Below, piece after piece: positions 17,522 through 46,714 of a DNA stretch of 49,780 nucleotides; the stretch's first letter is position 1, and each line of letters opens with the position of its first letter. This DNA is from a virus. Both the position numbers and the translations under genes were made by a program. The stretch lies in IMG/VR virus record IMGVR_UViG_3300048586_000634, positions 1-49,780 of that record; one strand, 5' to 3'. The notes beneath the pieces are model-generated. The model did no database searches and had not been told where the DNA came from. It saw only the letters and a program-made list of their open reading frames with translations.

Positions 17522-17561
17522 TATAATCTTGGATTGGTGATGACACGTAGATTGATACGTG
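17522..17561 (+). promoter_or_regulatory. Candidate promoter and operator of the RLYP/DUF488 cassette
   Basis: TATAAT at 17522-17527 is a consensus -10 box; no good -35 is present at 17 bases. A perfect dyad, CACGTA-gattga-TACGTG, lies at 17544-17561, about +10 to +27 from the expected start of transcription. A dyad at that place would suit repressor binding. The cassette start codon is at 17607. Confidence 0.5.
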
Positions 17562-17606
17562 GTAGTAAAAGATTGCTGGTCCAAAGTTTGCTTGATAGGA
17601 GCGCCC

Positions 17607-18404
17607 ATGTCCAAGATCCCCGGAACAGAGACTTCGTTAGAACTGTTGGTCAATTGCAAGACTTACCCAGCCGTGAGCACGAAGTATGTCGAGACAGTTT
17701 GCACTGGTGGTGTTCAGCCTAGTGGAGAATTCGTTCGGCTTTATCCAATTCAGTTTCGATTCCTCGCCAAGGACGAGCAATACGACAGATGGGATGTAAT
17801 ACGGGTGAAAGCCTATCGAGACAGTAAAGACACGAGGCCAGAAAGTTGGCATTTAGCAGCGGGCAGCGAAATCCAAAAACTCCAACACATTGGCAGCGAG
17901 GCTGAGCGATGGGACTGGATGAAGCATACAGTCCATGAAAGCACAGATGACATGGAACGGAAAGGTCTAACCAACGGCTGTGTTGAGATTGAACCGATCG
18001 AGCTGTACTATGAGCCAGACAAAGTGGAGTGGACGGAAAAGCAAAAGGAACTAATCGCCCAGAAAAACTTCTTTTTGGAAGAAACCGCAATGAGGGCAGT
18101 CGAAGAACGAGTACCCTACCAGTTCCGGCTTAGGTTTCGTCAGAAGATCGGTTCTAAGGAACAAGACGGAAAAGTTTTGGCGTGGAGTTATTACGCAGGC
18201 TATCAAAGGAATCGTCGCGATGGATTATCCGAGAACGAAAGCTTAGAACGTGTCGCAAATCGCGTGAGAGGTAGTATTTTCAATCCAGAGAAGACAGTAT
18301 TCGCCATCTTTGGTACGCACAGTCGGTTCAAAACCTGGATGATTTCCTCCCTTTATCACCTACCCACGAAAATTATTCGAAAAGACAGTCGGAGCCTATT
18401 TTGA
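17607..18404 (+). CDS. RLYP-motif protein of unknown function, partner of DUF488
   Basis: 265 residues from an ATG with AGGAG upstream. The N-terminus has a conserved-looking pattern: LVNCKTYPAVSTKY, ETVCTGGV, then EFVRLYPIQFR (41-51), followed by QYDRWDVIRV and DTRPESW. I recall this pattern in uncharacterised bacterial proteins encoded beside DUF488, but I cannot name a family. The rest is charged with no membrane segment. The stop overlaps the TTG start of the DUF488 gene. The pair has its own TATAAT box and dyad and splits the tail operon, so it is cargo. Confidence 0.6.
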   Translation: MSKIPGTETSLELLVNCKTYPAVSTKYVETVCTGGVQPSGEFVRLYPIQFRFLAKDEQYDRWDVIRVKAYRDSKDTRPESWHLAAGSEIQKLQHIGSEAERWDWMKHTVHESTDDMERKGLTNGCVEIEPIELYYEPDKVEWTEKQKELIAQKNFFLEETAMRAVEERVPYQFRLRFRQKIGSKEQDGKVLAWSYYAGYQRNRRDGLSENESLERVANRVRGSIFNPEKTVFAIFGTHSRFKTWMISSLYHLPTKIIRKDSRSLF

Positions 18405-18862
18405 AAACCATTTTTTCACTTGGTTATGGGAGTCGAAATATCAATGCTTTTGTTGATCTTCTTCAAGAAAACAAGATCAATGTGCTCGTCGACACAAGAG
18501 AGCTTCCGATCAGCAGAAAGTCCGGATTTTCAAAAAAAAGCCTCACTACGAGACTCGAGGACGAAGGGATTGATTACGTTCACTTTAAGCAGCTAGGTTC
18601 ACCATCCTGGGCGCGTTCCGAACTGAAGCGAACTGGCGACTATGACACCTTCTTTTTGAATGTCAGAAATCATCTCGAATGTGCCGCTGAGGACGCGTTG
18701 TCCGCTGTATCTGAGTTGGTTGCTAGAAAAAAACGCCTATGCCTAATGTGTCTTTGCCCGGATGTTTCAAAATGCCATCGAAGTATCGTCCTTGATCTTC
18801 TCGATGAGAGATTTTCGATTAAGCATGCAGGTCTCAGGGACAACCAGCCGCGAGCTGCGTAA
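18401..18862 (+). CDS. DUF488 family protein
   Basis: 153 residues from a TTG overlapping the previous TGA (TTGA). DUF488 features are SLGYGSRNINAFVDLL, VLVDTRELPISRKSGF (D31, R33), GIDYVHFKQLGSP, and the C-terminal CLMCLCPDVSKCHR (C117, C125, H126, R127). The last motif is the family's conserved C...CHR. The family has no settled biochemical role. Tight coupling to the RLYP protein suggests the two form one functional unit. Confidence 0.85.
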   Translation: MKTIFSLGYGSRNINAFVDLLQENKINVLVDTRELPISRKSGFSKKSLTTRLEDEGIDYVHFKQLGSPSWARSELKRTGDYDTFFLNVRNHLECAAEDALSAVSELVARKKRLCLMCLCPDVSKCHRSIVLDLLDERFSIKHAGLRDNQPRAA

Positions 18863-21710: not shown

Positions 21711-21752
21711 AGAAAGGGCTGTTGTTCGAACTCCTCTATCCGAGGACAGCCC
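21701..21752 (+). promoter_or_regulatory. Programmed -1 frameshift signal (A AAA AAC plus stem-loop)
   Basis: The heptamer A AAA AAC (21701-21707) lies in the correct register right before the zero-frame TAG. Eight bases downstream GGGCTGT (21716-21722) pairs perfectly with ACAGCCC (21746-21752), giving a seven-base-pair stimulatory stem. The -1 frame is open from 21707 to 22099. All three standard elements of -1 programmed frameshifting are therefore present. Confidence 0.9.
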
Positions 21753-22102
21753 AGATCGATTGCAATGCTTGCAAGAAGTACTCGTTCAATCTCAAGACCG
21801 GAAAGGTCAACGAGTACGAAGGAGAGGACGGAAAGATGCTTCCTGTACTTAGGCAGGGAGATCCTCCATGTGGCAGTTGCCCGAAGAAGAGCCCGGAAAA
21901 CGGTAGGCGGTTGCGGCTGCGACTGGAGAATAGGCTCATGCTGGATTTCTATCATCGCTTCAAGTCGTGCCCAACGATGCGTTCGCGTTTGTTGGACTGT
22001 CCTGTCACGCAGCGTAACATCCGCTTGATCGACAACGTGTTCGAGTTGGCTAAGGCGAAGCTCATGAGACGAGCTCAGAAGAAGGCGAGAAAGGTGCACT
22101 GA
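21707..22102 (+). CDS. Tail assembly chaperone, -1 frame extension (gpT-like)
   Basis: 131 codons read after the -1 shift, giving a fused product of about 296 residues. There is no ATG; the only independent start is a TTG at 21722 inside the stimulatory stem, so separate initiation is unlikely. The extension is unusual in having cysteine clusters (DCNACKKY, CGSCPKK, SCPTMRSRLLDC) that could bind zinc. The end is basic (KKARKVH). Its TGA overlaps the ATG of the tape measure gene (TGATG). Confidence 0.85.
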   Translation, partial: LEKGLLFELLYPRTAQIDCNACKKYSFNLKTGKVNEYEGEDGKMLPVLRQGDPPCGSCPKKSPENGRRLRLRLENRLMLDFYHRFKSCPTMRSRLLDCPVTQRNIRLIDNVFELAKAKLMRRAQKKARKVH

Positions 22103-24825
22103 TGGCTGATGACGATTCCGTATTGTTTGAAGTGGGCGTCATTGAGAACCCACAGACAGGCAAACGTATCGAGAAGCTGGCTCAGTCCGTGGAGGAAAGC
22201 CAGGCTAGGATGCAAGGCGGACTCGCGGCGATTGGTGTCACGGCGGAGTCGGTCAAAGGAATGATGACGGGGCTCAACGCTCAGTTGATTTCCTTCCGAG
22301 ATAGTTCAGTCGAAACGGCCTCTCAGATTCGATCCGCGATGAGTCGCATCCGGGCCGAAGCGAGCGTAGTGCCGAGCGCTGGTGTCGGTGCCGCGCCTTC
22401 CGCTGCGTCCGAGATGGGTTCGCTTGGGGCGATGGCTGGATCCGGCGTGGGTGTAGCTGCCGACTCCGTAAAGGACTTGGGCGATGCGGTTAAAGACACA
22501 GGTCCTTCGCTGCAGGACCTGCAACGCGGGCTTGAGAATGTATCCAGCGCTGCGATGGACGCTGGTGACGATATCGACAAAGCGAGGGGCAAGGCGGGAG
22601 ATCCGATTGCGCTTCGGTTCACCGATGAGCTTACTCCCGCGATGCGAAACGTCCTCGACGAACTGTCGGGTATTGCGGAAGAGGAGCTTGCGAAGGTCTC
22701 GCAGATCATCGAAGAGTCGATCGACAAGCTGCCGACAGCGGAACAGCAAGTGACGCAGAAGATTCGGGAAGAGTACGAAGCGAGGATGGTTGCCGCGTCG
22801 GAAGCCTACGCTGCGATGGCGAATGATGTCGAAGGCTACATTGCCAAGGAGGGCACGGCGGCGGAGAAGATCCAGGCCAACATGGCAAAAGCCGAAGCCT
22901 CGGTGAAGGGTTATCGTGATGCTCACAAAGAGGCTCAAGAGCAGGTTGACCAAGCAACCGTAAAAGGTCTGCGATCTTCGCTTCAAATGGTGAAGGGGTT
23001 TGCTGAGCTCGGTCTGATGACCGAGGAGAACACTCAAAAGTTCATGCAAAGCATGGCTGTGATCCAGGGGCTATTCGACATCTTCGAAGGTGGTGTCGAC
23101 ATGCTCGAAGCGGTGTCGCAAAGCTGGAAGGCAGTCTCCAAAGCAACCGACGCTGCTACAAAGGTTCAAATGGTCGAGCAGGCGCTGCAGACGACGCGGT
23201 TTGCGCAAATGCGAGCCTACCATGCGGCTCTGGTTCAGGAGATTGGATTGGCGAACGCGGCGGCTGCTGCTAATGCGAACCTTGGGGCGGCAAGAAACAC
23301 AATGCCTGCGATGGGCGTGGCCGGGAGTGTCGCAAGCGGCGTGGGCGGGCGCGTTGCGGGAGCTGCGGGAGGGGTTGCAGCAGGTGGGTCGGGGATGCTC
23401 GGAACGGTGGCGGCGGCTGGTTTGGCTACTAAGTTCCTACTGCTTGCTGGAGCTGTCGCGGCTGCAACTGGTGCTGTGATCGGATTTAAGGAAATGGTCC
23501 GGGGAGAAACCGGTGATCCCAAATCAGTGTCGGGAAGGGCTGGCACTTGGATAGCCTCGACAGGCGCATGGGCAATGGAAAGCATCGCGGGTCGCGGTGT
23601 CAACAGAGGCATGCAAGCTTTACCGGGAGCGTCTGGTTTAGGGCCGGTGATCGGAGACGTCGCGGCTTTGACGGACAGTAACATTGCGACGAAGCGTGTT
23701 ACTGATGCGCAGAATCGGAGGATTCTGCAAAACAAGATCGACGATGAAAAAGCGGGCATCGAGCGAGATGCCGGCTATGAGACAACCAGGACTCAGTTGT
23801 CGGCGAAAACCGACATGAGTCGCCAGGCGTACGAGGCTCAGACGTCCGAGGCACTTACCGGCCTTGAGTTAGGAGTGAGCTTGGCGATCGACTCCAGCGA
23901 TCTTGCCAAGCAGCAAAAAATCATCGAGCAGTTCAATGCTGGATATGCGTTGGATATGCAAGCGGTGGGAGATGCAAAGTCGCAGATCGTGGCCTTGCAG
24001 GCGGGTATTGTTGACAACCTGAAGGACCAGTCGGAGCTTGCTGCGTCCAAGGGCGCCAAGCAGCTTACCAGCGAACTGGAGATTCAGGCGACAATACGAG
24101 AATCGATTGCTAAGCAGGAAAGTAAGATTGCGGAGCTGGAGACGAACGGCGTTGCTTCGGCCGATGAGCTGAACGACGCTTACGAGCATGCGAACTACCT
24201 CAACGACATGCTTATCGGCAGTCTCGAAAAGCAAAGGCAGATCCAGTCGCAAACAGCGGCGGAACGGTTAGCTGCCGAGCAGGGATTGCAGCAGGAGATC
24301 CGATCGCAGCTCGATGTTCAGACGACCCGAATGCAACGCCTCGAGGAGATGAGCCGCAGTGCAGGCCGAGCCTATGTAGATATGACCGACCTAGAGCGGG
24401 CCCAAGCAGATGCAGCTATCGAGAAGGCGAGAGCGCAGGGGGGTAAATCGCTAGGGCGAGAAGAAAAAGATTTGCTGTCTCGCGTTGGCACGGAGGAAAC
24501 GGCAAGATTTGTGGACCAGTATTACGTGAACAAGCAGGAAGAGCTCGGCTTCTCCCAGAAGTTCGGAGGAGAGATCGAAGCTGAAAAGCAACAGATCGCG
24601 TCAACGAAATCGGTCCTCGAAGCACAGTTGCAGGCGAGTTACGACGTCAGCGTTTCGGTGAAGATGGATGAAGGAGCGATCGTGGATTCCGTTGTGAACG
24701 AGGCAAGCAAGATCATGGATAAGAAAGTCGAAACCATCACCCAGCAGATCACCCAAAAGATGCAGCAGGACAAGGCGACAGCTTTCCAGTCGAAAGTGAT
24801 GGAGTCGAGGCTCAAAAAGCAATAG
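22102..24825 (+). CDS. Tail tape measure protein
   Basis: 907 residues, the classical long alanine/glutamate/glutamine-rich coiled-coil protein that sets tail length. A hydrophobic stretch around 430-465 (TVAAAGLATKFLLLAGAVAAATGAVIGF) is the membrane-active region typical of tape measures. Long helices flank it. No lysozyme or peptidase domain is evident. By the usual rule of roughly 1.5 angstrom per residue the tail would be around 135 nm (inference). It starts on the chaperone stop (TGATG). Confidence 0.92.
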   Translation: MADDDSVLFEVGVIENPQTGKRIEKLAQSVEESQARMQGGLAAIGVTAESVKGMMTGLNAQLISFRDSSVETASQIRSAMSRIRAEASVVPSAGVGAAPSAASEMGSLGAMAGSGVGVAADSVKDLGDAVKDTGPSLQDLQRGLENVSSAAMDAGDDIDKARGKAGDPIALRFTDELTPAMRNVLDELSGIAEEELAKVSQIIEESIDKLPTAEQQVTQKIREEYEARMVAASEAYAAMANDVEGYIAKEGTAAEKIQANMAKAEASVKGYRDAHKEAQEQVDQATVKGLRSSLQMVKGFAELGLMTEENTQKFMQSMAVIQGLFDIFEGGVDMLEAVSQSWKAVSKATDAATKVQMVEQALQTTRFAQMRAYHAALVQEIGLANAAAAANANLGAARNTMPAMGVAGSVASGVGGRVAGAAGGVAAGGSGMLGTVAAAGLATKFLLLAGAVAAATGAVIGFKEMVRGETGDPKSVSGRAGTWIASTGAWAMESIAGRGVNRGMQALPGASGLGPVIGDVAALTDSNIATKRVTDAQNRRILQNKIDDEKAGIERDAGYETTRTQLSAKTDMSRQAYEAQTSEALTGLELGVSLAIDSSDLAKQQKIIEQFNAGYALDMQAVGDAKSQIVALQAGIVDNLKDQSELAASKGAKQLTSELEIQATIRESIAKQESKIAELETNGVASADELNDAYEHANYLNDMLIGSLEKQRQIQSQTAAERLAAEQGLQQEIRSQLDVQTTRMQRLEEMSRSAGRAYVDMTDLERAQADAAIEKARAQGGKSLGREEKDLLSRVGTEETARFVDQYYVNKQEELGFSQKFGGEIEAEKQQIASTKSVLEAQLQASYDVSVSVKMDEGAIVDSVVNEASKIMDKKVETITQQITQKMQQDKATAFQSKVMESRLKKQ

Positions 24826-24923
24826 GCAAGCTTTTCACATGATCCCTATCGCGGTCGCGAAGCGTGGTAAATACAATGACCTCCTAGGTGGGCCGTGAAC
24901 CGCCCCGTTCCTTGTAATTTGCA

Positions 24924-25379
24924 TTGCATGTCGCCATTACTCCAGTACCGATTGCTGTTGCCATGCTGTTCGTTGTTCTAGGTGCTTTCGTAATCGTAGG
25001 TGTTCTAGTTGCCCTCGTTATTCGTGATAGCAAAAAAGGTAGTGAAGCCAGCGCGGACGAGGCACGTCGATTAAAGATGGCGCGAGAGAGGCTGCCGGTT
25101 TTGGCCGCGAAATTGGAGCAATCCCCAGATTGTGAGTTGTCACAGAAGGAGCTTATTCAGATCTGCCGGGCATTTCCGCAATTTGCAAGACCCGTTTACG
25201 ACCTAGCACTGAAAGCTGTGGCGGCAAGTGGTGGAAGCGTAGCAGCAAAGACGTTTGCCTTGAATGTCGGTCGAGCCTCTTACTCACTCGGCCGGCCTGA
25301 AGGTGCCCCGACAGTTTACGACGAACAAGCCATCCTAAATGACATCCGCGTCCGCGAGTCGGCTGGTCGTGCAGGATAG
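24924..25379 (+). CDS. Single-pass membrane protein, possible cargo component
   Basis: 151 residues. A single transmembrane helix (about 9-33, PIAVAMLFVVLGAFVIVGVLVALVI) is followed by a basic/charged, helical cytoplasmic part (SKKGSEASADEARRLKMARERL). The only available starts are TTG at 24924 and ATG at 24963, neither with a good ribosome binding site. It follows the tape measure by 98 bases and precedes the DprA-like/PRTase-like pair by 226 bases. It may be a tail or lysis-related membrane protein, or the membrane partner of the downstream cassette. Confidence 0.55.
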   Translation: MHVAITPVPIAVAMLFVVLGAFVIVGVLVALVIRDSKKGSEASADEARRLKMARERLPVLAAKLEQSPDCELSQKELIQICRAFPQFARPVYDLALKAVAASGGSVAAKTFALNVGRASYSLGRPEGAPTVYDEQAILNDIRVRESAGRAG

Positions 25380-25489
25380 GAGGGTTCCTGGAAGTTCTTT
25401 CCGCACTAAAGGATTCGATGTCCGATTTCAGCTAAAATAGAGACAAGTCTGGTCCCACCCTTCCAAAACTCGGTGGGTTTGGTCGGGAT

Positions 25490-25609
25490 TTGCCGTCAGG
25501 ACTGGAAGGATTGCGAGTTCTGGACAATAACTTGATAGTCTGGATGGCAGCAGGCGAACTTCCTGCGAAAGTGGCTCAAAACATCGCCAAAGTGGAGAAA
25601 GTGACTTGA
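25490..25609 (+). CDS. Possible short ORF coupled to the DprA-like gene
   Basis: An open frame whose TGA (25607-25609) overlaps the TTG start of the DprA-like gene. Possible starts are TTG at 25490 or ATG at 25544, giving 39 or 21 residues with a helical basic end (AKVAQNIAKVEKV). A stop at 25433 limits it upstream. The overlap suggests translational coupling, but the peptide is short and may be a leader or the remains of a longer gene. Confidence 0.3.
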   Translation: MPSGLEGLRVLDNNLIVWMAAGELPAKVAQNIAKVEKVT

Positions 25610-26298
25610 TCACTGAGTACTCGCCAATCGAGCTGATGGGTGTGTTGAACGACGTCGAAATCAAAAATGCCCCGGAACGATTATTCGTTAGGGGGGACGC
25701 GCAACTTCTTCATGGGAATGGTCGCGTTTCCATTGTTGGTTCGCGAAAAGCGTCCCAAGGCGGCATTGGGCGAGCGGCCCGACTTGCGAAAATGCTAGTC
25801 GAACAAGGATTCGTTGTGGTGAGCGGGCTGGCCGAAGGAATTGATGCGGCAGCCCACAAATCGGCAATCAGCCATGGCGGGAAGACCATCGCCGTCATTG
25901 GAACACCCATCGACAAGGCTTATCCGGCGAAGCACAAAGCATTGCAGGAGGAGATTGCGACTAACCATCTTCTGGTCTCGCAGTTCCCAATTGGAAGCAA
26001 GACTTTTCCAAATTGCTTCCCCATGCGGAACAGGACGATGGCATTGCTCTCTCACGCCACTGTGATCATTGAAGCGGCAGACGGCAGCGGCTCTCTTCAC
26101 CAAGGGTGGGAGGCGCTCAGGCTGGGGAGACCGCTCTATTTGGCTCGATGGCAGGTAGAAGACCAATCACTGGAATGGCCCGCAAAATTTCTCGACTATG
26201 GGGCGATCGTACTGGACGAAGAATCGGTTGTGGACCTGATGCTCAGCCTTCCCAAGCAAATTGACGTAGATGAGCACTCAGCCGCCTTTTCCCTCTAA
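25606..26298 (+). CDS. DprA/Smf-like SLOG-domain protein
   Basis: 230 residues forming only the Rossmann-like core of DprA. Motifs: SIVGSRKAS (42-50), VVSGLAEGIDAAAHK (71-85), GGKTIAVIGTPID, YPAKH, FPMRNRTMALLS (138-149) and IIEAADGSGSLHQGWEALRLGRPLYLAR. The last block departs from genuine DprA (SGSLiTa...AvPG), and the N-terminal SAM and C-terminal winged-helix domains are absent. That favours a specialised SLOG paralogue that binds nucleotides rather than a competence ssDNA-loading factor. The TTG start has GGAG upstream. The 3' end overlaps the PRTase-like gene by 29 bases. Confidence 0.85.
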   Translation: MITEYSPIELMGVLNDVEIKNAPERLFVRGDAQLLHGNGRVSIVGSRKASQGGIGRAARLAKMLVEQGFVVVSGLAEGIDAAAHKSAISHGGKTIAVIGTPIDKAYPAKHKALQEEIATNHLLVSQFPIGSKTFPNCFPMRNRTMALLSHATVIIEAADGSGSLHQGWEALRLGRPLYLARWQVEDQSLEWPAKFLDYGAIVLDEESVVDLMLSLPKQIDVDEHSAAFSL

Positions 26299-26935
26299 AT
26301 TGGTATTTGCTTCTTACTTGGTGTACTCGCCAAAAGGGCTGTCTGATGTTTCGGGTCAATCGCGAAACGTCTGCTACAGCGTAAAGAACAACGGGACTAT
26401 TCAGGGAATACGTTCCATAGAACGTCTGGCAACCCGAGTAGCCGAAAGTCGCGAGGAGTTTCCGTTCCTCGGAGAGATTCTGGATAGGAAGTGCATCTTG
26501 GTTCCTGTCCCTCGCAGCAGTTTGATGCAACCAGGTACACTTTGGCCGTCTGACGTGATTTGTGACGAGTTGTCGAAGAACAATCTAGGCGCTAAGGTTC
26601 GATTGCTGCGTCGTCACAAACCTGCTCCGAAATCCTCTACCGCTGGTCCGGGTGGCCGACCTGATCCTGAAGTCCACTTTGAAACCACAGTTTTGGACCC
26701 TAATGCGATCGAACTTTTTCAGGTCCCAATGTCAATCGTTCTCGTTGACGATGTAATCACGAGAGGCTCCACTTTTATCGGAATGTGCGCAAGGGTGAGG
26801 ACCCAGTTCCCGAATGTGCCAATCTACGCCTTCGCCCTGATTCGAACTGAATCCTACAATGATATTGAATCCGTACGATCTCCCGTGCGGGGAGTGATCA
26901 ATTACGAAGTAGGTAGGCTTCATCGGGTCCCATAG
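26270..26935 (+). CDS. Phosphoribosyltransferase-like protein
   Basis: 221 residues. The PRPP-binding loop is IVLVDDVITRGST (156-168), the signature of type I phosphoribosyltransferases, and ILVPVPRSS (76-84) is the family's early strand, as in ComF. The region between has a Gly/Pro-rich flexible loop (STAGPGGRPDPE). It starts 29 bases inside the DprA-like gene, so the two are translationally linked. Together they resemble the two competence proteins DprA and ComFC, here without any other competence gene. Acceptor base or nucleotide unknown. Confidence 0.82.
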   Translation: MSTQPPFPSKLVFASYLVYSPKGLSDVSGQSRNVCYSVKNNGTIQGIRSIERLATRVAESREEFPFLGEILDRKCILVPVPRSSLMQPGTLWPSDVICDELSKNNLGAKVRLLRRHKPAPKSSTAGPGGRPDPEVHFETTVLDPNAIELFQVPMSIVLVDDVITRGSTFIGMCARVRTQFPNVPIYAFALIRTESYNDIESVRSPVRGVINYEVGRLHRVP

Positions 26936-26995
26936 AGTCCTATGTTTGAAGCTTAACAAGAAGGACGACTAGCTTGGTTGCCGGAGGGGACCAAG

Positions 26996-27736
26996 TTGAT
27001 AGTCGTTTACGGCAATTACCGCCATAGGCAAGATAGTACTGGTATCACCGTATCGACCTCGATTGAGGAAAACGAAACGGGAGTGCCCTACCGCGCCGTC
27101 ACCGATATCAACATCGAAGGACGGCTTCGCAACAGGCGACTCGAATCGCCAAAGTCTCTTGATCCCATCATCCGCGAAATGGAGCTTGCGTACTCCCAGC
27201 CCGGTATGGACTTTGGGATGCTTCATGACGACGGCACTCGGTCGACCGTCTGGTTTCGCAATGCGGACACCATAGGCGGGATCCGGCCTCGCATGCTTGC
27301 CTATCCGAACTACCGCGGCGGCGAGTATGTCAACTATCGCCAGTTTCAAATCCAACTTTCGGTCATGCACCCCGTGGTTGGTACGCCCGAATACATCCGG
27401 TTCTCAGAGTCTATCTCCATCGACGGTGGAGGCGGCGAGTGGGATGTCAAAGAAACCAACTTTGGCCGGGGTGTTCGGCATCGACTTCGGACACACAAAA
27501 AGTGCACGGCAGTACAGTCCGGCAGTGCTGTAGGCAGAGACGATTTCCCCAGGATTCCTCCTCCGATATGGCCGTTCGCGCTTCGTACCGAAGAGCCCAA
27601 GATCGATCGGGAGATTCGACCGCGAGGCGGTGCACGTACGGGTAATGTTCGCCTCGAAGAGTGCGAAATCTCATGGACCTACGAATACGTTTGGCCAGTT
27701 CGGCTCGACGGGATTCCTCACTATGCAATTGGGTAA
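26996..27736 (+). CDS. Tail protein, likely distal tail component
   Basis: 246 residues from a TTG with GGAGGGG six bases upstream; an earlier TTG at 26978 is less likely. The sequence is strand-rich (KLIVVYGNYRHR region, STSIEENETGVPYRAVTDINIEGRL) with several Arg-rich turns and a WTYEYVWPV end. It directly precedes the large tail-tip protein, where distal tail (Dit-like) proteins are found. No motif proves it. Confidence 0.5.
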   Translation: MIVVYGNYRHRQDSTGITVSTSIEENETGVPYRAVTDINIEGRLRNRRLESPKSLDPIIREMELAYSQPGMDFGMLHDDGTRSTVWFRNADTIGGIRPRMLAYPNYRGGEYVNYRQFQIQLSVMHPVVGTPEYIRFSESISIDGGGGEWDVKETNFGRGVRHRLRTHKKCTAVQSGSAVGRDDFPRIPPPIWPFALRTEEPKIDREIRPRGGARTGNVRLEECEISWTYEYVWPVRLDGIPHYAIG

Positions 27737-30700: not shown

Positions 30701-31405
30701 ACGATCGTTCGCGTCAACCAAATGGGTGGCTCGGCTATTCTCAATAAGCCACCAACAATGATCGTCTCGACTGGAGGCTCCATGGTGGTGAACGGTGATG
30801 GTGCCTGCAAGCTTCTCGACCTGTTCGATACCAACGTGCGTTGGCTGGCAAGCGGCGTGTTGGGCAAGTCGGGCGTGGTTGAAACGGCGATGTTCGGTGA
30901 CACCGAGTCCGGATTGCTTGGCGACATTGACGGGGGAGATGCTTTCTCGACATTCGGGGGAGGAGGCGGGGGACTTGCCGATTCTTCAACGGTAGCGACA
31001 GGGATCAGGATACTCAGCACGGCACATGGACTCACCTCCGGGGATCGCGTCTATATGCGGGCCTACTCTGGGATCATCGGCCTTGATGGCCGAACCTTTG
31101 CTGTTCGTGTGGTCGATGAAGACACATTCGATCTTATTGCAGCGGCAGCCTACGGAACGCTCGTTGGATACGAGGGGCAAGTGCACTGGGGGGAAGCCAA
31201 CACGGTGCGAGTCCGTGGGAGTGCGGTTTTGGATTTTGACTCGGACGGTCGAGATCGCGATATCGTCGCGCCTGTCGTCGTTCAGGGGACTGGAGTTCTC
31301 AGTGATCTCAAAGGGACCATCATCGATTTGCGGATGTGGCCGGAGCAGGTTGAGTCGCTGCTCTACCTCGGTACGCAGGTGGAATTGCGAAGGACGAGTC
31401 GATGA
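27743..31405 (+). CDS. Large modular tail-tip protein with repeated beta domains
   Basis: 1,220 residues from the ATG at 27743. At least five related blocks of about 75-100 residues can be aligned by eye (near 136-212, 222-320, 496-572, 582-702, 716-792), with the pattern GxWxLxYNG, FNASAANVQSAL, then GGPYRVIWS. Residues about 795-1060 start with FNNADNWSLGRTPADGDQIVF and look like a beta-solenoid. Residues 1062-1134 hold an IDGGDAFSTF block followed by an FCCH-like unit (AHGLTSGDRVYMR, GIIGLDGRTF). All this fits an extended tail-tip or fibre protein. It overlaps the next gene by four bases. Confidence 0.75.
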   Translation: MPSNRWIGQAVATREIVQFVPRNISPGDRFQLSDGVQRYGFTYPAIQPESDTTAKDRASRVVEAIVSAANQDNTVNLGGGIEDEVEIEVSNYGGQPSIRVAGLASGRPVSLVATAVPASQNAIRVSQLQEGSSGKDLVFELKWPAVPTLGKWAIAADGKRPEILAYNAIAADLKSAIEGFGLPCTTVTVTGSHSAGYVVTLSGLTAEMPNPPLLFPIVPPPRIEQVVEVTLYEHSKYRFGETSYEPIFIEADASAAEFKSYLLVAGLSSIHLPNITVVRTEITPTMDYEAGAVYEVSFNSDAAYDAFMALPKFRIGYTFTAKDYTSAGTLPNSYLYDFDLLRITNIGGYKLRLYQPQISVGGSTLNPFNRYWHTKAFPEYSVPEVPTTWDLEYVINSPVSGYDSQVTIARTTRLYTGDVSKDGVDVVFRFTMDNATVVNLTSLQIGVAIGLPEAEVPLEVNVITGAERNTLGVNNNAGYKITTVSGTGITNKVVLLPALDLNHQSLYQFEWNGVRSHRFTGASKRADIIAAAESVFGSGNVAVSIAEGGQYQIEFCGDQSEVDVNFKLILPGSSAESAVVIEPQTPMKEWVLRYQFLGGVCSGKWRFRDALGTPAGPDFDWLTDEEVTGADILDALTEIEQNYGSVLEPTDVEVVTEAVGRKFLVREFTITFQAQPYADLVGEEDIPFWVDIDVSDLLTAEPAMSVTAIGQPQKVEIQSISIEHAPTSGLWRLSYNGSNTTDLSFNASAANVQSALTALGETVTVVGASGGPYRVIWSTAGERHLLSGTDLTLSSASVPAFDTVVVQPGTGPNHFNNADNWSLGRTPADGDQIVFADGSVSCLYGLECTTIPSGVDVYRSWTGSLGLAEVREDGSVETLPSWLVFSATSVSSLPIRIGLGESGEGPAVCRISVANRPFDGNVLYSQTGTRVKAVALKGTNAANKLVCVQGDVALGVRPEDVSSLALLQLVPGSSGEELTFYASEGATIVRVNQMGGSAILNKPPTMIVSTGGSMVVNGDGACKLLDLFDTNVRWLASGVLGKSGVVETAMFGDTESGLLGDIDGGDAFSTFGGGGGGLADSSTVATGIRILSTAHGLTSGDRVYMRAYSGIIGLDGRTFAVRVVDEDTFDLIAAAAYGTLVGYEGQVHWGEANTVRVRGSAVLDFDSDGRDRDIVAPVVVQGTGVLSDLKGTIIDLRMWPEQVESLLYLGTQVELRRTSR

Positions 31406-33159
31406 CCGTTTACGACGTCGCAGGCAGAATCAAGTACGGGCTGATCGAGGGGGTCGGGCAGATGTCCGTCACTCGATCTCGTGGGATTCAGCCAGCCACG
31501 ATACAGATCATGCTTCCGTTCAGGCCGGAGCTTCCGTCAGGTCCGGAGCCAGTATTCCTGCATGACGGGATTCGGTCTTTCACGCTTCCGGACTGCGTAT
31601 TCCAGTCGATGGACGTCCAGTTTTCGGATGGTCTCGAATGTCTGATCACACTCTTGGATTACCGGTGGCGGTGGCAATACGGCCAGGTGTCCGGGGAGTA
31701 CAACGTCATTCGTGGGGGCATCGTCATACCGGATTCGAAGAAGAGTCTGGAGGAACTCGCCAAGATCTGCCTCAAGGAAATGGGAGTTACCAACTTCGAC
31801 GTCTCGGTGCTACGGAAGATCGATTCCCTTCCAAGTGTGACGTGGGATCTCGACAACCCGGCTCAAGCTCTTGAATCGCTTGTGAATCAGTTCGGGCTTG
31901 TGATCTGTCCGCAGTTAAACGGCTCCGTCGTCATTGCGAAAAGAGGCGTTGGGAAGCGGCTTCCTCGGATGATAGGCGCGGAGTTCACGAGCACGTTGAA
32001 AGTTCAGACGGCTCCCGATGAGATACACATCCATGCGTTGCCAACGATATGGGAGGTCTCGATCGAGATCGGGGATGCAGTTGGGATCGAACGGAGTAAA
32101 CCGACGGCTACCGACGCGTCTGTCGAGAGCATCGTTCCGGTGGATAAGCTGAGCTACACCCCGGTGACGACATGGGAAAGGGAGAACCCGTTGATGTTCC
32201 CAAACGTGGGGCTTAAGGTTCTTCCCGACAAGGACGCGCTTAAAGAACTTACTGACTTCGAGAGCTTGGAGCTGCGGCGTGAGGCGGATCGTATTCGCGG
32301 CCTGGCTCAAGAAAGCATTTGGAAGCTCTTTACGTTCAAGTTTCCGTTCACGCTGCCCGGGCTCAGTTTTGAGATCAAAGACATCAACCAGATCGAGTTC
32401 CTCGACGAGCTTGTGTCAGAGACCGTCGTTGAGTACGAAACGCCGTTGCAGAAAAAAGCCGCCGAGGTTCGTCGGCAGAAACCGTTCGTCTATGGAATGT
32501 TCTACGATCAGAACGGCTTTGGGAAGAACAATGTCGATAGCTTCTCGCACGACTACGACAAGGATGCGAGGTTGATCTATCAAGGCGGGTTCAATGTCGA
32601 CAAGCAGCGGGGGCTTATTGTCTTTAGTAATCCGGTTTACCTGTTCGAACGGAATCAAGGCGAGTTGATTTACTCCGCGCCAAAGCTCTTCCTTCGCACG
32701 GCGATATCGGTTCGAGATCCGAAGTCTCGAGCTCTCTGGCGAGAGGTTCTCAAAGTTAAGACGGGATATCGAAACGACTCCTTGCCGATGGCAGTGAGGG
32801 GGGATTTGGCCCTGGAGGTGGTTCAACAACCGAACAAGAGCAAGAGTACGGACAACAAGAAAGAACTTGAGAAGGAGTTGAGGAAGCGGCTTAATGCTGA
32901 GGTCGAGCGCATATTGCCCGATGTTCCCGAGACTGGAAGCTACTCGGGATTTATTCCGATCGAGCTGGACGGCACGATCGAGCAAGTGAGTTACCAGATT
33001 GATGCGTCTGGGTTTGCAACCACCGTCGCTAGCTTTGGAATGGAACACTCGCTTGTTGTAGCCTCGCATGAAGAGCGAATGCGTATCGCTCGAACTGATG
33101 CGTTTATTAAACGCAGTAACTCCATGCTTCAAAACAACGTTCCGGCTGGTCCAAAGTGA
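31402..33159 (+). CDS. Tail hub / baseplate protein
   Basis: 585 residues starting on an ATGA overlap. The first half (GVGQMSVTRSRGIQPATIQIML, LEELAKICLKEMGVTNFDV, PAQALESLVNQFGLVICPQLNGSVVIAKRG) has the beta-barrel and helix order of the gp27/tail-associated hub fold, in which a LysM-like or alpha/beta insert is common. The second half is a charged region with a helical ELEKELRKRLNAEVERILP segment. Position after the tip protein agrees. No catalytic residues are apparent. Confidence 0.65.
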   Translation: MTVYDVAGRIKYGLIEGVGQMSVTRSRGIQPATIQIMLPFRPELPSGPEPVFLHDGIRSFTLPDCVFQSMDVQFSDGLECLITLLDYRWRWQYGQVSGEYNVIRGGIVIPDSKKSLEELAKICLKEMGVTNFDVSVLRKIDSLPSVTWDLDNPAQALESLVNQFGLVICPQLNGSVVIAKRGVGKRLPRMIGAEFTSTLKVQTAPDEIHIHALPTIWEVSIEIGDAVGIERSKPTATDASVESIVPVDKLSYTPVTTWERENPLMFPNVGLKVLPDKDALKELTDFESLELRREADRIRGLAQESIWKLFTFKFPFTLPGLSFEIKDINQIEFLDELVSETVVEYETPLQKKAAEVRRQKPFVYGMFYDQNGFGKNNVDSFSHDYDKDARLIYQGGFNVDKQRGLIVFSNPVYLFERNQGELIYSAPKLFLRTAISVRDPKSRALWREVLKVKTGYRNDSLPMAVRGDLALEVVQQPNKSKSTDNKKELEKELRKRLNAEVERILPDVPETGSYSGFIPIELDGTIEQVSYQIDASGFATTVASFGMEHSLVVASHEERMRIARTDAFIKRSNSMLQNNVPAGPK

Positions 33160-34379
33160 TGCAGAATCAAAGATACTTCGTGAATGTGTCTGGGGAGAAG
33201 GTCCCGCCGTTTGCGGCAATGCAGCTCACGTGCAATCCGAAGAAATGGAAGGAGATAGATAGCCAGCCATTCAAGTCGGACCTGCAGAAGGAGATAGACA
33301 AGCTGGTGGACATTAAGTCCGATTTGGAAGTCGGAAATATGCCGGTGATCTACTGCACGAAGCCGAACAAGGCAGGGCAGGTGTTGCAGGATGCCTCGCT
33401 TGTTGCGTTCAACGGAGAAACGGAGGTTCCAGCCAGCGGAACAGGCGTTTGCAGTTTTGGAGCTTATCAATACAAGACGCTCGGCGGGGGTGCGATAGGC
33501 TCGAGGAGCTTCTCGTTGCAAGCAGGGGAGTGGTCGCTGGTCACGAGTGGGTTCACGTACGGGCCGTTTCGATCGCTCTCAACAACAAGCCATCGCGTAT
33601 CGTACAAGGGTAACAGCAACCATCCCGTGATGATGGTGATCCCCAATCAAGCCCAGCAGAGATCGCTCACTCCGTTGGCTTCCGCTCGATACAAGGTAGA
33701 TGGTATTGGGGAGTTCCCATTTTACTCCGTTGTGTCTCCACGTGCGGGTGTTGGATTCTGGCACGAGTTTGGTGCGTTGGGTTCCGAGTTCAGTGGTGTC
33801 GACGCTCTCTTCTTCCAAAGTGGCGAGTCGTTCCGCTTTGAGCTTCCGGGGACTTATGACGTGCAGGTGTTAGGAACGATCAGCGTCAGAGACGTTCCGG
33901 AAGAGCTGAATCTAGTGCCGATTGATTTTGGGCTGTCTTGGAATTATCCAGGTTGGGCCGAGTTTCAAGATGCTACGGGGGCCGGGGCGAGAGCTGGCAT
34001 CGTCATGGTCAAATACATTAAGACCCCGGACGGCGTAATAAGGCCTATGGATGTTAACGAAGAGATGGTCGCTCCCAATGCGTACGCTTGGTCGAGAACT
34101 TCGTTTATCTACCAGGACCGGATCACCGTGAAGGCAGGTGGTGTCGAGATGTACCTGACGCAGACGGGCTCCCCGTATGTTTCGATCAGCGAAGGCGTAC
34201 TCAACGTCAAGAAGGTCGACTCAGCCGTGTACGGTGAAACCTTGTTCAACGAATCCAGGACGTTTTCGTGGGCTCCGTACCAGGGCTTGTATGCGTCGAA
34301 TTTTCTTTACTCAAACGTATTCAACACCTCGGTCGCTATTGGCCGTATTGCTGTCGTCAACGAAACACCTCAGTTCTGA
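33159..34379 (+). CDS. Virion protein of the tail tip, unknown function
   Basis: 406 residues from the ATG at 33159 that overlaps the hub stop. It is beta-rich and glycine/serine/tyrosine-rich toward the end (GVEMYLTQTGSPYVSISEG, SNFLYSNVFNTSV), with no membrane segment or enzyme motif. The first 60 residues include a short helix. Its stop overlaps the next ATG (TGATG). A receptor-binding or upper-baseplate role is likely from context only. Confidence 0.55.
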   Translation: MQNQRYFVNVSGEKVPPFAAMQLTCNPKKWKEIDSQPFKSDLQKEIDKLVDIKSDLEVGNMPVIYCTKPNKAGQVLQDASLVAFNGETEVPASGTGVCSFGAYQYKTLGGGAIGSRSFSLQAGEWSLVTSGFTYGPFRSLSTTSHRVSYKGNSNHPVMMVIPNQAQQRSLTPLASARYKVDGIGEFPFYSVVSPRAGVGFWHEFGALGSEFSGVDALFFQSGESFRFELPGTYDVQVLGTISVRDVPEELNLVPIDFGLSWNYPGWAEFQDATGAGARAGIVMVKYIKTPDGVIRPMDVNEEMVAPNAYAWSRTSFIYQDRITVKAGGVEMYLTQTGSPYVSISEGVLNVKKVDSAVYGETLFNESRTFSWAPYQGLYASNFLYSNVFNTSVAIGRIAVVNETPQF

Positions 34380-35254
34380 TGGACCAAGCTCGTCAGCATG
34401 TCGAGGCGTGCGCCCGAAAGTTGGGAATTGCCTTTAGCAAGGCTCACTACCTCAGGTGGTGCAAAGATCCGTTCGATCCAAATCGCAAACGGATTGAAAG
34501 TGCTTTTGGGTCGGTGTTCGCTCATGCCGTTTTGCAGCCAGCGGATTGGAGGTCGATTCAACAGCCGGTAGTTTCCCATGTCGTTGCCGTGACGTCGCTT
34601 CCTCAATTGCCCAAGGCGAGGCACGTGCGGGCTGTAGAGTCTTGGAAGCGGGCGGGCTTGTATGTTGTGTCTGTGAACAGCTCAGACGAGGTTCGTCAGC
34701 TTCGTGGGCGAGTAGCGGTCGATGAGTTCATGCCATGCGACGACTTGCCGACGGCGTTCAAGATTCCAACTCAGTACGTGCACACGATGCTTCGAAAGGC
34801 GAGCCAGTTTGGGAGGTCTGTTCTTCTAGTCAACTCTGACATCGAGATCCTGGGTTCGCATGATGTACTTCGCCATCTCAGTGACAATGAAGCAATGATC
34901 GGCATTCGAACGAACTACTCTGGTGCGTTCACAAACGTGCAGAGGGAGAGATGGGGGCTGGATGTCTTTCACTTGTCAGATGCGATCGCTCGATCCATTC
35001 CGGACTCCATATACGCGATTGGACGGCCGTTCTGGGATTATTGGCTGCCGTGGTTGCTGCAGCGAGACAAGGTTTCGCTGCGATGGGTCGGTGATGAAGT
35101 GTTCTTTCACGAGCGACATCCGCAGGCTTGGACCGATGAAGATTGGCAGCTCGGTCGAGCTTGGTTCGAAGAAAAGTACGACCTGTCGATCAACTGGGAG
35201 ATGTGGAGACGTCGCCAGCCTTTCCCGCCTAGTCGCGTGACAATGATTTCGTAA
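34379..35254 (+). CDS. Second glycosyltransferase-like protein
   Basis: 291 residues. VVAVTSLPQLPKARHVRAVESW and SVLLVNSDIEILGS (147-160) resemble a GT-A nucleotide-sugar site, with NSDIEI in place of DxD. WVGDEVFFHERHP and the C-terminal Trp-rich segment are also glycosyltransferase-like. It shares general character with the protein at 6519 but not obvious sequence identity. It starts on the previous stop (TGATG), so it is co-expressed with virion genes and could glycosylate a tail protein. Confidence 0.5.
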   Translation: MDQARQHVEACARKLGIAFSKAHYLRWCKDPFDPNRKRIESAFGSVFAHAVLQPADWRSIQQPVVSHVVAVTSLPQLPKARHVRAVESWKRAGLYVVSVNSSDEVRQLRGRVAVDEFMPCDDLPTAFKIPTQYVHTMLRKASQFGRSVLLVNSDIEILGSHDVLRHLSDNEAMIGIRTNYSGAFTNVQRERWGLDVFHLSDAIARSIPDSIYAIGRPFWDYWLPWLLQRDKVSLRWVGDEVFFHERHPQAWTDEDWQLGRAWFEEKYDLSINWEMWRRRQPFPPSRVTMIS

Positions 35255-35271: not shown

Positions 35272-35673
35272 ATGTCATTGGCTTCCGTGGTGGATATGTC
35301 AATCGACTCGCTGGGGCGAACGATGGAAGCATGCAATTTGATTTCGCTTCTGAAACATTGGAAGCTACCGACGTCGAACGAGAATCGGCTTCAAGCGGCC
35401 TTGGAACAGGTGCTTATCGAGCTTGAGATTCCATTCGAAAGAGAAAAGAGGCTTGAGGCTGGCGTCATTGACTTTTGCGTCGATGGGCTTGGTGTCGAGT
35501 GCAAAGTAAAGGGCTCCTACCCAAGCGTGATGGAGCAGGTGGCTAGGTACTGCGGTTCGCAAGCGATCGATAGCATCCTTGTTGTGACCACGGTGGCTGC
35601 GCATCGCAAACTGGACGGTATGCAATTCCAAGGAAAGGTCGTTCGTGTCTACTGGCTTAACGTCTGGCAGTAA
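35272..35673 (+). CDS. PD-(D/E)XK nuclease (VRR-type)
   Basis: 133 residues with an intact core: NRLQAALEQVL (helix with E45), EIPFEREKRL, D67 in GVIDFCV, and E76-x-K78 in GVECKVKG, then VMEQVARYCGSQAIDSILVVTT. This matches small phage VRR-NUC-type nucleases. Its 3' end overlaps the helicase start by 29 bases, so nuclease and helicase are made together. The pair is embedded in virion genes. Confidence 0.82.
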   Translation: MSLASVVDMSIDSLGRTMEACNLISLLKHWKLPTSNENRLQAALEQVLIELEIPFEREKRLEAGVIDFCVDGLGVECKVKGSYPSVMEQVARYCGSQAIDSILVVTTVAAHRKLDGMQFQGKVVRVYWLNVWQ

Positions 35674-43108: not shown

Positions 43109-44074
43109 TCAATCCTTCTCTAAACACTCCCCAATCACCGCTGCGAGCCTCACCGACGCCAATTTTGCCCGCTCCTGGGCTACTCGCCCCGCTTTTTTCA
43201 GGTAGGCCTCGGAGAGGTCTACCTTTGGCACTTCGGTGGCCAACCCTCGGCTGACAAGTGCCACTTGGCTCAGAACCTCGTCGGTGTAAACGGACTCGAC
43301 GGCGAACTTGCGGCTTTCGTCGATCCAGACGGTCGGGTTGACCTGCTGTTCATTGGACCCCGCATCGACATTCAGCTTGGCAATTTCGTCAACGCGACGT
43401 TTGACGTCTCCCTCATCGTACCTATCACCGAGGAGCTGGTCCCACAGTGCGTGCATGTTGCCCCGCTGCGCCGTCAGGATGCGGTTTGCTCCTCGGTCCC
43501 CATCCTTTTCCTGAAAGACGCCCTCGACGTACAGTGAGCCTGCGTGGCAGGGCTGGTGGGCATCGGCGACCAGGTGAGCGATCCAGCAAAGCGCGACGGC
43601 TCGATCGGCGTCCGGGCGGCTCTTGTCCTTCAGGACCGACCTGCACAACTGGACGGCTTGGACGATGTGAAGGTCCTGGGTGGCGAGAGAGGCATCCGCG
43701 GGGACAGGTCCGGGTGTCTCGGGGACCTGGAGCTTGGTTTTGTCTCCGATCGCCAGCGAGGCTCCAAGCTGGTAGTGCCAAGTCGACCGATGGTACTCGG
43801 GTTGGCGTCGGGCGACGTCCGGCCAGTAACCGATCCGACCGATCATCCAAGCGAGTTTGCTGCTGTCGGACTGGATGCCGTTCGGTGGTGCAAAATCATC
43901 GGCGAACCGTGGGTGCGCCTTCATGAGACGTTCGATTTCGGCACGTTCGGCAGCTGAGGAGTTCCGGTAGGCCAATTGCATGATGATCGCGTGACCGCAT
44001 TCTGACCAGGCAAAAGCTGGAGCGGAACTGAGTGCGACCATGGCGGTCACGAGAAATGTAAAGAATCGTTTCAT
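43109..44074 (-). CDS. Secreted S1/P1-type nuclease
   Basis: 321 residues from the ATG at 44074. A signal peptide (FLVTAMVALSSAPAFA) ends just before Trp23, and S1/P1 enzymes need a mature N-terminal Trp for zinc binding. H28 in SECGHAI, AHLVADAHQPCHAG, GDRGANRI and NMHALWDQL are the family's zinc-ligand motifs, all present. The enzyme degrades single-stranded nucleic acid. Its location in a prophage suggests host-benefit cargo or an import from the host. GC content is higher than in the neighbouring fibre genes. Confidence 0.92.
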   Translation of the reverse strand: MKRFFTFLVTAMVALSSAPAFAWSECGHAIIMQLAYRNSSAAERAEIERLMKAHPRFADDFAPPNGIQSDSSKLAWMIGRIGYWPDVARRQPEYHRSTWHYQLGASLAIGDKTKLQVPETPGPVPADASLATQDLHIVQAVQLCRSVLKDKSRPDADRAVALCWIAHLVADAHQPCHAGSLYVEGVFQEKDGDRGANRILTAQRGNMHALWDQLLGDRYDEGDVKRRVDEIAKLNVDAGSNEQQVNPTVWIDESRKFAVESVYTDEVLSQVALVSRGLATEVPKVDLSEAYLKKAGRVAQERAKLASVRLAAVIGECLEKD

Positions 44075-44246
44075 CGGTTTAGAAAATTCTGTGAATGCTG
44101 ATCGACCAGGAAAACTCACCTCAGAATAGCAAAACCATCTGAGCAGACTTGCATTTTCACCCAATCTTCACGGCGATCGGCACCGGTCAGTCCATCACCA
44201 AAATGCCGATAGCTTGAAATTTCTCTTTCGCACACAAGACAAACGC

Positions 44247-44839: not shown

Positions 44840-45070
44840 TCAGCGAAAGTCGCTGCGATCTTCCTCCAACTCGCCAAGCTGCTCGTGTAGGCTTGTTTGG
44901 CTGGCAGGAGCTCCTGTCGCAATTAGGTTTCGGACGCGAGTCCAGACGGCTTGTAGAGGGCTCCCGCTGAACTCGCTTCGATAGATGTCCATGAGTGAAG
45001 TGCAACGGGCTCTTTCAGCTTCGACTGCCTTCTCGATCATTTCCCTGATCTTCGCTTGGTCCGTATCCAT
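44840..45070 (-). CDS. Small helical acidic protein downstream of the integrase
   Basis: 76 residues from an ATG with GAGG seven bases upstream, overlapping the end of the integrase gene by 56 bases on the same strand. The sequence (KIREMIEKAVEAERARCTSLMD ... EQLGELEEDRSDFR) is helical and charged. It would be co-expressed with the integrase. It may be an excisionase-like or regulatory partner, but no HTH is visible. No family recognised. Confidence 0.5.
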   Translation of the reverse strand: MDTDQAKIREMIEKAVEAERARCTSLMDIYRSEFSGSPLQAVWTRVRNLIATGAPASQTSLHEQLGELEEDRSDFR

Positions 45071-45935
45071 CTGGTCGCCTCGGAACAGAGTATTGTCGGC
45101 GTGCTCTATGGTCTATGTAAAATTTGCGAACGATCCGAGTTCCGCTCGTGTGACCGAGCGACTCAGCGGCGGCTGACTCGCCACTGCTGATGTAAACTTG
45201 GGTTGCATTCGTCTTTCTGAGTGTACCAAGATTCTTGCCCCGTACGCGACGAAATCCGTACTTCGCAGCCCCGCGAAAGATCTTCTCCATCCACTTCCGG
45301 ACGACGGTCCAGGTCACCGGGAAAACAAACTCCGGATCGGAATTTCGGATCTTCTGCAAGGCTTCGATCGCCGGGTCGTCTAGGAACGTTACATGGGGCT
45401 TCTTGGTTTTGTTCTGGATAAGGCAAATGCTCTTGGTCGCAAAATCGATATCCGCCCATTGCATCAAAAACAAGTCGGTTGGTCGCAAACCAGTATTGTA
45501 GGCGACCCAAATCATGGCAGTGAACAAGTCCCCTGGGTGGACCGGTATGTTTCGGAAAGAGCCCGTAAGTTCGCTTGCGCTTTGCAGCAATGCGTGAAAG
45601 TCCTGAAGGCTCCATGCCGTGACGGGGGTCTCTTCGGCTTTGGGGCGTCGCAGCCGCTTGATCTCGTACGCAGGCTTATGTTCCACCTGAGTCAAGTGGT
45701 TCCAGACTCGGCACAAGGCGCGACGGTAGTTGCCTGCGGTAGTGTTGGATCGAGATTGCTGGATGTACTGGATGAACTTGTTGAGGTTGTCTCGCTCTAG
45801 GTCGTCAGACTGCGCCTGCTTGCCAAGCCAGTCAGAAAATCTCCGAACCGACCGCGAGTACATGTTCTGGGTCTTGTAGCAGAGATCGTGCTCCATAGCG
45901 ATTTGTTCGAGGGCTGTCTTCAAAAGCATGGCCAT
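45015..45935 (-). CDS. int: Tyrosine recombinase / integrase
   Basis: 306 residues from the ATG at 45935, preceded by AGGAGAACGA; upstream frame to 46052 is not needed. Core residues are R151 (NTGLRPTDLF), R240 in LGTLRKTNATQVY, H262 in SLGHTSG and Y273 in RKFYID. The usual first His of the HxLR box is replaced by Gly237 (GTLR), a known but uncommon variation. N-terminal SAM-like core-binding domain at about 1-100. It is adjacent to the tRNA-derived attachment site, as expected for a prophage integrase. Confidence 0.92.
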   Translation of the reverse strand: MAMLLKTALEQIAMEHDLCYKTQNMYSRSVRRFSDWLGKQAQSDDLERDNLNKFIQYIQQSRSNTTAGNYRRALCRVWNHLTQVEHKPAYEIKRLRRPKAEETPVTAWSLQDFHALLQSASELTGSFRNIPVHPGDLFTAMIWVAYNTGLRPTDLFLMQWADIDFATKSICLIQNKTKKPHVTFLDDPAIEALQKIRNSDPEFVFPVTWTVVRKWMEKIFRGAAKYGFRRVRGKNLGTLRKTNATQVYISSGESAAAESLGHTSGTRIVRKFYIDHRARRQYSVPRRPDGYGPSEDQGNDREGSRS

Positions 45936-46050
45936 TCGTTCTCCTCTCGGGGGAAAGTGATGAAACGATATACGCCGTAGAATTCCGGATGCGTTCCTGT
46001 TCCGGTGCGGTTTGCCGCAAGTCAGTGGGAAATGAGGTGGCTTTCTGGAC

Positions 46051-46099
46051 ACACGGCTTCATAAGCCGTGTGTCGGTGGTTCGAGTCCACTCATCGCTA
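46051..46099 (+). other. attR-like site: 3' part of a tRNA-Met gene
   Basis: ACGGC / GCCGT anticodon stem (46053-46069) encloses the loop TTCATAA with anticodon CAT. A five-base variable loop follows, then T stem GGTGG / CCACT around TTCGAGT (46075-46091), then a 3' acceptor strand CATCGCT with discriminator A (46099). The matching 5' strand AGCGATG and D arm are missing: the 26 bases upstream do not fit. So this is the 3' tRNA fragment left at a prophage end. The intact tRNA should lie at the left border. Confidence 0.8.
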
Positions 46100-46712: not shown

Positions 46713-46714
46713 TT

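What the first reader, a model, noticed from the sequence alone, without database searches (positions are those of the whole stretch)
24924..26935. Candidate membrane + DprA-like SLOG + PRTase cassette inside a phage tail operon
Seen: a single-pass membrane protein, a DprA-core protein lacking its SAM and winged-helix domains, and a ComF-like phosphoribosyltransferase, with TTGA and 29-bp overlaps binding the last two (and a short ORF). Known: DprA belongs to the SLOG nucleotide-binding superfamily, whose members occur in nucleotide-signal conflict systems. Inferred: a nucleotide sensor (SLOG), a nucleotide-modifying enzyme (PRTase) and a membrane effector may form an anti-phage or superinfection-exclusion module carried as cargo. 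I cannot confirm whether this exact combination has been described.
Basis: partly seen in the sequence, partly recalled or inferred. Interest (0 to 1): 0.75.

Follow-up and report, generated by a model that had tools for sequence, protein, structure and literature searches.

The report
ShosTA-type defence pair in planctomycete prophage
A virus sitting in a bacterial chromosome carries, wedged between two of its tail genes, a compact version of a known two-gene self-poisoning anti-virus system (ShosTA: a DprA-like antitoxin and a phosphoribosyltransferase toxin), so the finding is real but mostly an already described kind of system in an unusual place.

Summary
At 25606-26298 there is a DprA core and at 26270-26935 a phosphoribosyltransferase (PRTase), with a 29-bp overlap, preceded by a single-pass membrane ORF (24924-25379), inside a prophage tail operon. 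The pair matches PADLOC's ShosA (8.7e-73) and ShosT (2.4e-23). DprA+PRTase was shown in 2022 to defend E. coli against T7 and lambda, and ShosTA has solved structures. The pair recurs widely: most PRTase relatives found in bacterial and archaeal genomes have a DprA core just upstream, usually overlapping. In a tree the window's DprA groups with these cassette copies and phage copies, away from full-length DprA of the same genomes. In five related planctomycete prophages the two flanking tail genes overlap by 1-19 bp; here 2.15 kb lies between them, so the interval is accessory cargo. The membrane ORF has no relative beside any other copy, so a three-part module is not supported. This version lacks the HAD-like domain of E. 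coli ShosT, like two sequenced phages' copies. Best reading: a compact ShosTA-type toxin-antitoxin cargo pair that aborts infection by competing phages. Function is inferred; nothing was tested. Known kind, new member, unusual location.

The parts
25606..26298 (+). ShosA-like antitoxin: DprA Rossmann core, 230 aa, TTG start, no SAM or winged-helix domain
   Evidence: Pfam DNA_processg_A 4.5e-54; PADLOC ShosA PDLC03961 8.7e-73; tree placement; model mc4506b0fb031, fold hits DprA 3uqz and ShosA 8zva
26270..26935 (+). ShosT-like toxin candidate: type-I phosphoribosyltransferase, 221 aa, PRPP motif at residues 156-168, no HAD domain, no CxxC zinc ribbon
   Evidence: PADLOC ShosT PDLC03962 2.4e-23; PRTase_2 9.4e-5, below Pfam's cut-off; motif and cysteines; fold hits ComF 7p0h, ShosT 8zvc/8zvd/8zvb; invariant D160, D161, T164, G166, T168 in 40 homologues
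26270..26298 (+). 29-bp overlap of the two genes (suggests translational coupling)
   Evidence: the same -29 spacing in planctomycete loci L042, L044, L045, L050 and viral L077
25436..25609 (+). short open frame ending in the TTGA at the DprA start; no homologue, may be a leader or nothing
24924..25379 (+). single-pass membrane protein of unknown family, in the same inserted interval but not a conserved partner
24826..26977 (+). accessory (cargo) interval between two tail genes that overlap in five of seven compared relatives
22102..24825 (+). tape-measure-like tail gene, left flank of the insert
   Evidence: colinear homologues in planctomycete prophages; no named family
26978..27736 (+). tail gene, right flank of the insert (start may be 26978 or 26996)
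   Evidence: homologues directly after the tape-measure gene in relatives
45015..46052 (-). tyrosine integrase next to tRNA-Met 46024-46100: the element is a temperate prophage

Best explanation
The two genes 25606-26298 and 26270-26935 are a compact ShosTA-type toxin-antitoxin pair carried as cargo by a temperate planctomycete phage. Shown: pair identity, conservation, separate DprA lineage, intact PRPP-binding motif, inserted position. Inferred from characterised relatives: the PRTase, when free, spends PRPP and disturbs the purine nucleotide pool, damaging DNA replication and stopping growth; the DprA-like partner, made from the overlapping upstream gene, binds single-stranded DNA and keeps the PRTase harmless; infection by a competing phage (through DNA replication/recombination intermediates or a phage protein) breaks this balance, so the infected cell dies or stalls before the competitor multiplies and the lysogen population and its prophage survive.
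For: PADLOC ShosA and ShosT matches; the same models hit phages Mana and Riah, Pf phage PfAC02a (annotated ShosTA) and E. coli P2_4C9, whose second gene is the crystallised ShosT. The PRTase model's top solved matches include three ShosT entries; the DprA model's include ShosA 8zva. Of 68 genome loci found by PRTase similarity alone, most have a DprA core directly upstream, usually overlapping; of the five without, three are cut by contig ends and two have none. The tree puts the window's DprA in the cassette clade (99) away from 11 full-length DprAs. DprA+PRTase in a P2-like prophage hotspot protects against T7 and lambda (PMC9122126); ShosT is described as PRTase and pyrophosphatase acting on purine metabolism, ShosA as a DNA-binding antitoxin, with T7 Gp0.7 as trigger (PMC12593503 citing Pu et al. 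2025). Related RqlH: PRTase domain genotoxic, mutation of the PRPP site largely removes toxicity, a DprA-like partner restrains it (PMC4670107). Cargo: the flanking tail genes overlap in relatives.
Against: No function measured. The PRTase lacks the HAD-like region of E. coli ShosT, so the pyrophosphatase half of that mechanism may not apply. In the tree E. coli ShosA and PfAC02a ShosA fall outside the compact clade on long branches, so common descent with characterised ShosTA is not proven. Sequence profiles of the PRTase family do not find ShosT in the PDB, and the fold match to ShosT is partial (TMq 0.48). The position in a late operon and the lack of a sigma-70-like promoter leave expression in the lysogen unexplained.
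Confidence: 0.73

Rival explanations
1. The pair is a toxin-antitoxin addiction module that stabilises the prophage (or plasmid) and does not itself block other phages.
For: Overlapping two-gene layout with the DprA gene first; several homologues on plasmids, one beside parA and a replication initiator, one beside repB; DprA homologues act as antitoxins.
Against: The DprA+PRTase pair from a P2-like phage gave phage resistance when tested; many copies lie on long genome contigs not known to be plasmids. Both roles can hold together.
Confidence: 0.13
2. The pair is a DNA-handling helper like the competence proteins DprA and ComF, used by the phage for recombination or nucleotide salvage during replication.
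For: Closest solved structures are DprA 3uqz and ComF 7p0h.
Against: No CxxC zinc ribbon in the PRTase; ComF model far below its cut-off (0.0068, 16 of 233 bits); the DprA lineage is separate from housekeeping DprA; pair absent from the same junction in related prophages, so not needed for their growth.
Confidence: 0.07
3. One reading: a three-part system in which the membrane protein 24924-25379 is the effector.
For: The membrane ORF lies in the same inserted interval and looks coding.
Against: No homologue in any cassette locus; 226 bp separate its stop from the DprA start; a related prophage (L171) has unrelated small membrane genes at the same junction without the pair.
Confidence: 0.04

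Closest known systems
ShosTA (E. coli; PDB 8zvb-8zvd ShosT, 8zva/9vzo ShosA; PADLOC PDLC02997/03012 and PDLC03961/03962)
   Same: DprA-family protein directly followed by a PRTase in one operon (as in P2_4C9, L081); both window proteins match the ShosA/ShosT profiles; PRPP motif present; carried by a temperate phage.
   Different: The P2_4C9 ShosA is 349 aa and ShosT 424 aa with a HAD-like region; the window's are 230 and 221 aa, with no such region.
DprA-PRTase pairs of phages Mana (Burkholderia) and Riah (Pseudomonas)
   Same: Same order, same-sized PRTase without HAD domain, same 99-supported DprA clade.
   Different: DprA 282-311 aa with an N-terminal extension; different subclade; not between tape measure and distal tail genes.
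DprA+PRTase defence system of the P2-like phage hotspot (Rousset et al. 2022)
   Same: Same two components, same kind of carrier; shown to protect against T7 and lambda.
   Different: Hotspot next to cos, not inside the tail operon; different host group.
PsyrTA / RqlHI
   Same: DprA-like antitoxin with a PRTase-domain toxin.
   Different: Toxin is a RecQ helicase fused to the PRTase; PsyrA profile is weaker than ShosA for the window protein (93 against 243 bits).
ComF and DprA of natural transformation
   Same: Folds of the two proteins.
   Different: No zinc ribbon, no SAM/winged-helix domains, gene pair often on mobile elements.

Membership tests
ShosTA | ShosA: DprA-family protein matching the ShosA profile better than PsyrA | tested here: met
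   243 bits against 93
ShosTA | ShosT: PRTase-fold protein with PRPP-binding motif matching the ShosT profile | tested here: met
   PDLC03962 2.4e-23; motif IVLVDDVITRGST
ShosTA | The two genes adjacent, same strand | tested here: met
   29-bp overlap, conserved across loci
ShosTA | HAD-like region in ShosT (present in E. coli ShosT and PfAC02a ShosT) | tested here: not met
   Absent from the window, Mana and Riah PRTases. So the window pair is filed as ShosTA-type (compact branch), not as E. coli ShosTA proper; PADLOC's 237-aa ShosT model does not need this region
ShosTA | ShosA shares a clade with characterised E. coli ShosA to the exclusion of housekeeping DprA | tested here: inconclusive
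   Separated from housekeeping DprA, but E. coli ShosA sits on a long branch outside the compact clade
ShosTA | Toxin kills or arrests, antitoxin neutralises, phage defence | not testable with these tools
   needs expression and plaque assays
Housekeeping DprA (Smf) | Full-length protein with SAM/winged-helix parts, clustering with genomic DprA | tested here: not met
   most of the 12 host genomes checked hold a separate long DprA
ComF competence PRTase | N-terminal cysteine zinc ribbon and ComF profile | tested here: not met
   no CxxC; TIGR00201 16 bits against a cut-off of 233
PsyrTA/RqlHI | RecQ helicase domain on the toxin | tested here: not met
   PRTase is 221 aa, no helicase

The most novel reading that the evidence does not exclude
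The compact, HAD-less DprA-PRTase pair is a distinct and very widespread defence lineage of bacteria and archaea that works without the pyrophosphatase step of ShosT, using the bare DprA core as sensor-antitoxin; phages place it in late tail operons so that it acts late in the lytic cycle against co-infecting phages and not only in lysogens.
Probability: 0.15. Interest if true: 0.5.

Novelty: new member of a known kind. Interest (0 to 1): 0.27.

Why it matters
It extends a recently explained phage-defence pair to a planctomycete prophage and shows, by comparison with related prophages, that it occupies a tail-gene junction as removable cargo. The same compact pair in archaea, Bacteroidota, Pseudomonadota, Planctomycetota and viruses gives a natural minimal version in which the PRTase toxin can be studied without the extra HAD-like region of E. 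coli ShosT.

Tried and rejected
Close relatives by single-protein scans of viral contigs: none, also none for the 31402-33159 tail protein. PRTase against sequenced phages by tblastn: no match, although Mana and Riah carry one when their DprA hits are followed. Membrane ORF as a conserved partner: rejected. A recalled planctomycete C-terminal motif for the membrane ORF (YDEQAI.NDI) was tested and not found in 149 genomes. The short ORF before DprA as a remnant of a ShosA N-terminal domain: no similarity. A link of the pair with the PDC-M19 genes: only one locus (L048), so not claimed as part of the system. The primary ShosTA mechanism paper (Pu et al. 2025) is not held; its content is taken from a review.

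Full report
What is there. The window is an entire virus record of 49,780 bases. A tyrosine integrase (45015-46052, minus) lies against a tRNA-Met (46024-46100), and beyond it comes a DUF1559 protein with a weak pilin-type N-terminus (47848-48744), a family typical of planctomycetes (the taxonomic habit of DUF1559 is from my own knowledge). So this is a temperate prophage with some host flank at the right. Capsid, adaptor and tail genes run from about 9.7 to 40 kb on the plus strand. The three reported ORFs are real and placed as stated.

Identity of the pair. The 230-aa protein is a bare DprA core (Pfam 4.5e-54) whose best defence-database match is ShosA (8.7e-73, against 4.3e-27 for PsyrA); the 221-aa protein matches ShosT (2.4e-23). 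Pfam's own PRTase models reach only 9.4e-5 and stay below their cut-off, so the PRTase call rests on the ShosT profile, the motif IVLVDDVITRGST at residue 156, the invariant D160, D161, T164, G166 and T168 across 40 homologues, and a confident model (pLDDT 94.9) whose top solved matches are ComF 7p0h and ShosT with PRPP 8zvc, with ShosT 8zvd and 8zvb at ranks 4 and 7. These fold matches are partial (TM-score below 0.5 by query length). The DprA model (pLDDT 95) matches DprA structures first and ShosA 8zva at rank 14.

Recurrence. Plasmids of Allochromatium, Roseivivax, Paracoccus and Chryseobacterium carry the same pair in the same order (in Roseivivax the PRTase is only partly annotated). A scan of one genome per species, by PRTase similarity only, gave 68 loci. 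In the great majority a DprA core lies directly upstream on the same strand. Of the five without one, L008, L052 and L067 start at a contig end, and L024 and L039 have none. Over all loci the gap between the two genes is mostly an overlap of 4 to 95 bp, and exactly 29 bp, as in the window, in four planctomycete loci (start codons were chosen mechanically, so single values are approximate). The pairs come from both bacteria and archaea. Seven viral contigs carry relatives too. In L077 the pair stands opposite to, and inside, a head-gene block, and in L080 it follows a minor tail protein, so a place among structural genes is not unique to the window.

Separate from normal DprA. Full-length DprA genes were taken from genomes that also hold the cassette. 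In a quick maximum-likelihood tree of 83 proteins all cassette DprAs plus those of phages Mana and Riah form one group (SH-aLRT 99), the window's nearest neighbour being viral contig L074, and the 11 long DprAs lie outside. E. coli-type ShosA (L081) and PfAC02a ShosA (L083) also lie outside on long branches; the program warns that such placements are unsafe.

Cargo position. A search of 294 planctomycete genomes with the 31402-33159 tail protein gave nine with relatives. Eight regions were fetched; seven show the window's tail gene order around this site. In L170, L172, L173, L174 and L176 the tape-measure-like gene and the homologue of 26978-27736 overlap by 1 to 19 bp; in L169 they are 90 bp apart; in L171 about 1 kb there holds two reverse-strand genes for small membrane proteins. 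In the window 2,152 bp (24826-26977) separate them. The interval is therefore accessory. I infer insertion here and not loss elsewhere because the uninterrupted, overlapping state is shared by most relatives. The membrane ORF lies in this interval but has no relative beside any other copy of the pair, one weak hit in 149 planctomycete genomes, and no convincing similarity to membrane ORFs near the same site.

How it probably works. Nothing was measured. Rousset et al. 2022 (PMC9122126) tested a DprA+PRTase pair from a P2-like phage: it protected against T7 and lambda, and they proposed that DprA senses phage DNA and the PRTase is the effector. A 2025 review citing Pu et al. (PMC12593503) states that ShosT is a PRTase and pyrophosphatase that disturbs purine metabolism, causing DNA duplications, filamentation and death, that ShosA binds DNA and counteracts it, and that T7 Gp0.7 triggers the system. 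In RqlHI the PRTase domain is the genotoxic part, changing its PRPP site largely removes the toxicity, and the DprA-like partner restrains it (PMC4670107). I carry this over: PRTase as toxin, DprA-like protein as antitoxin, release upon infection by a competitor. One step may differ: E. coli ShosT has a HAD-like region which the window, Mana and Riah proteins lack, so I do not assume pyrophosphatase activity. How a pair inside a tail operon is expressed in the lysogen is open; no sigma-70-like promoter was found (0 against 1.7 expected), but planctomycete promoters may not fit that pattern.

Verdict. I score it as a new member of a known kind with a modestly interesting location and a compact build.

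Noticed in passing
window 17559-18404 and 18401-18862: A second candidate defence pair in the same prophage: PADLOC PDC-M19B (7e-38) and PDC-M19A/DUF488 (4e-34), overlapping genes, next to a low-GC patch.
   Followed up: partly
L048 2311-5178: In a Bathyarchaeota contig the M19A and M19B relatives and the DprA-PRTase pair sit back to back as four tightly packed genes; the only such case among the cassette loci.
   Followed up: partly
L171 9808-10782 (reverse strand): A related planctomycete prophage has two small membrane-protein genes, reversed, at the same tail-gene junction, so the junction looks like a site for accessory genes.
   Followed up: partly
L172, L173, L174, L176, between the homologue of 21722-22102 and the tape-measure gene: Small reverse-strand membrane-protein ORFs fill this gap in several related prophages: a second likely accessory site.
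   Followed up: no
L024 4004-5633, L039 3978-5639: PRTase relatives without DprA; the gene directly upstream looks like a MobA/MobL-type relaxase (recognised by eye, not tested) and overlaps it in L024.
   Followed up: no
L074 4127-4786: The PRTase of the window's nearest viral relative matches over nearly its full length but its open frame stops early, so it is probably frameshifted; this contig also shares genes like 7383-8939 and 34268-35254 with the window.
   Followed up: no
window 35645-37444: SNF2-family helicase gene within the late region, matching DpdE and ZorD defence models only in its helicase part.
   Followed up: no
window 983-1786 and 43109-44164: Thymidylate synthase ThyX and an S1/P1 nuclease gene carried by the element.
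   Followed up: no
window 7288-7371: Perfect 12-bp tandem repeat (TCTGATGGCCCG, about seven copies) just before the ATPase-like gene 7383-8939.
   Followed up: no
window 46320-46722 and 49119-49473: Two long direct repeats (92-95% alike) in the host flank around the DUF1559 gene.
   Followed up: no
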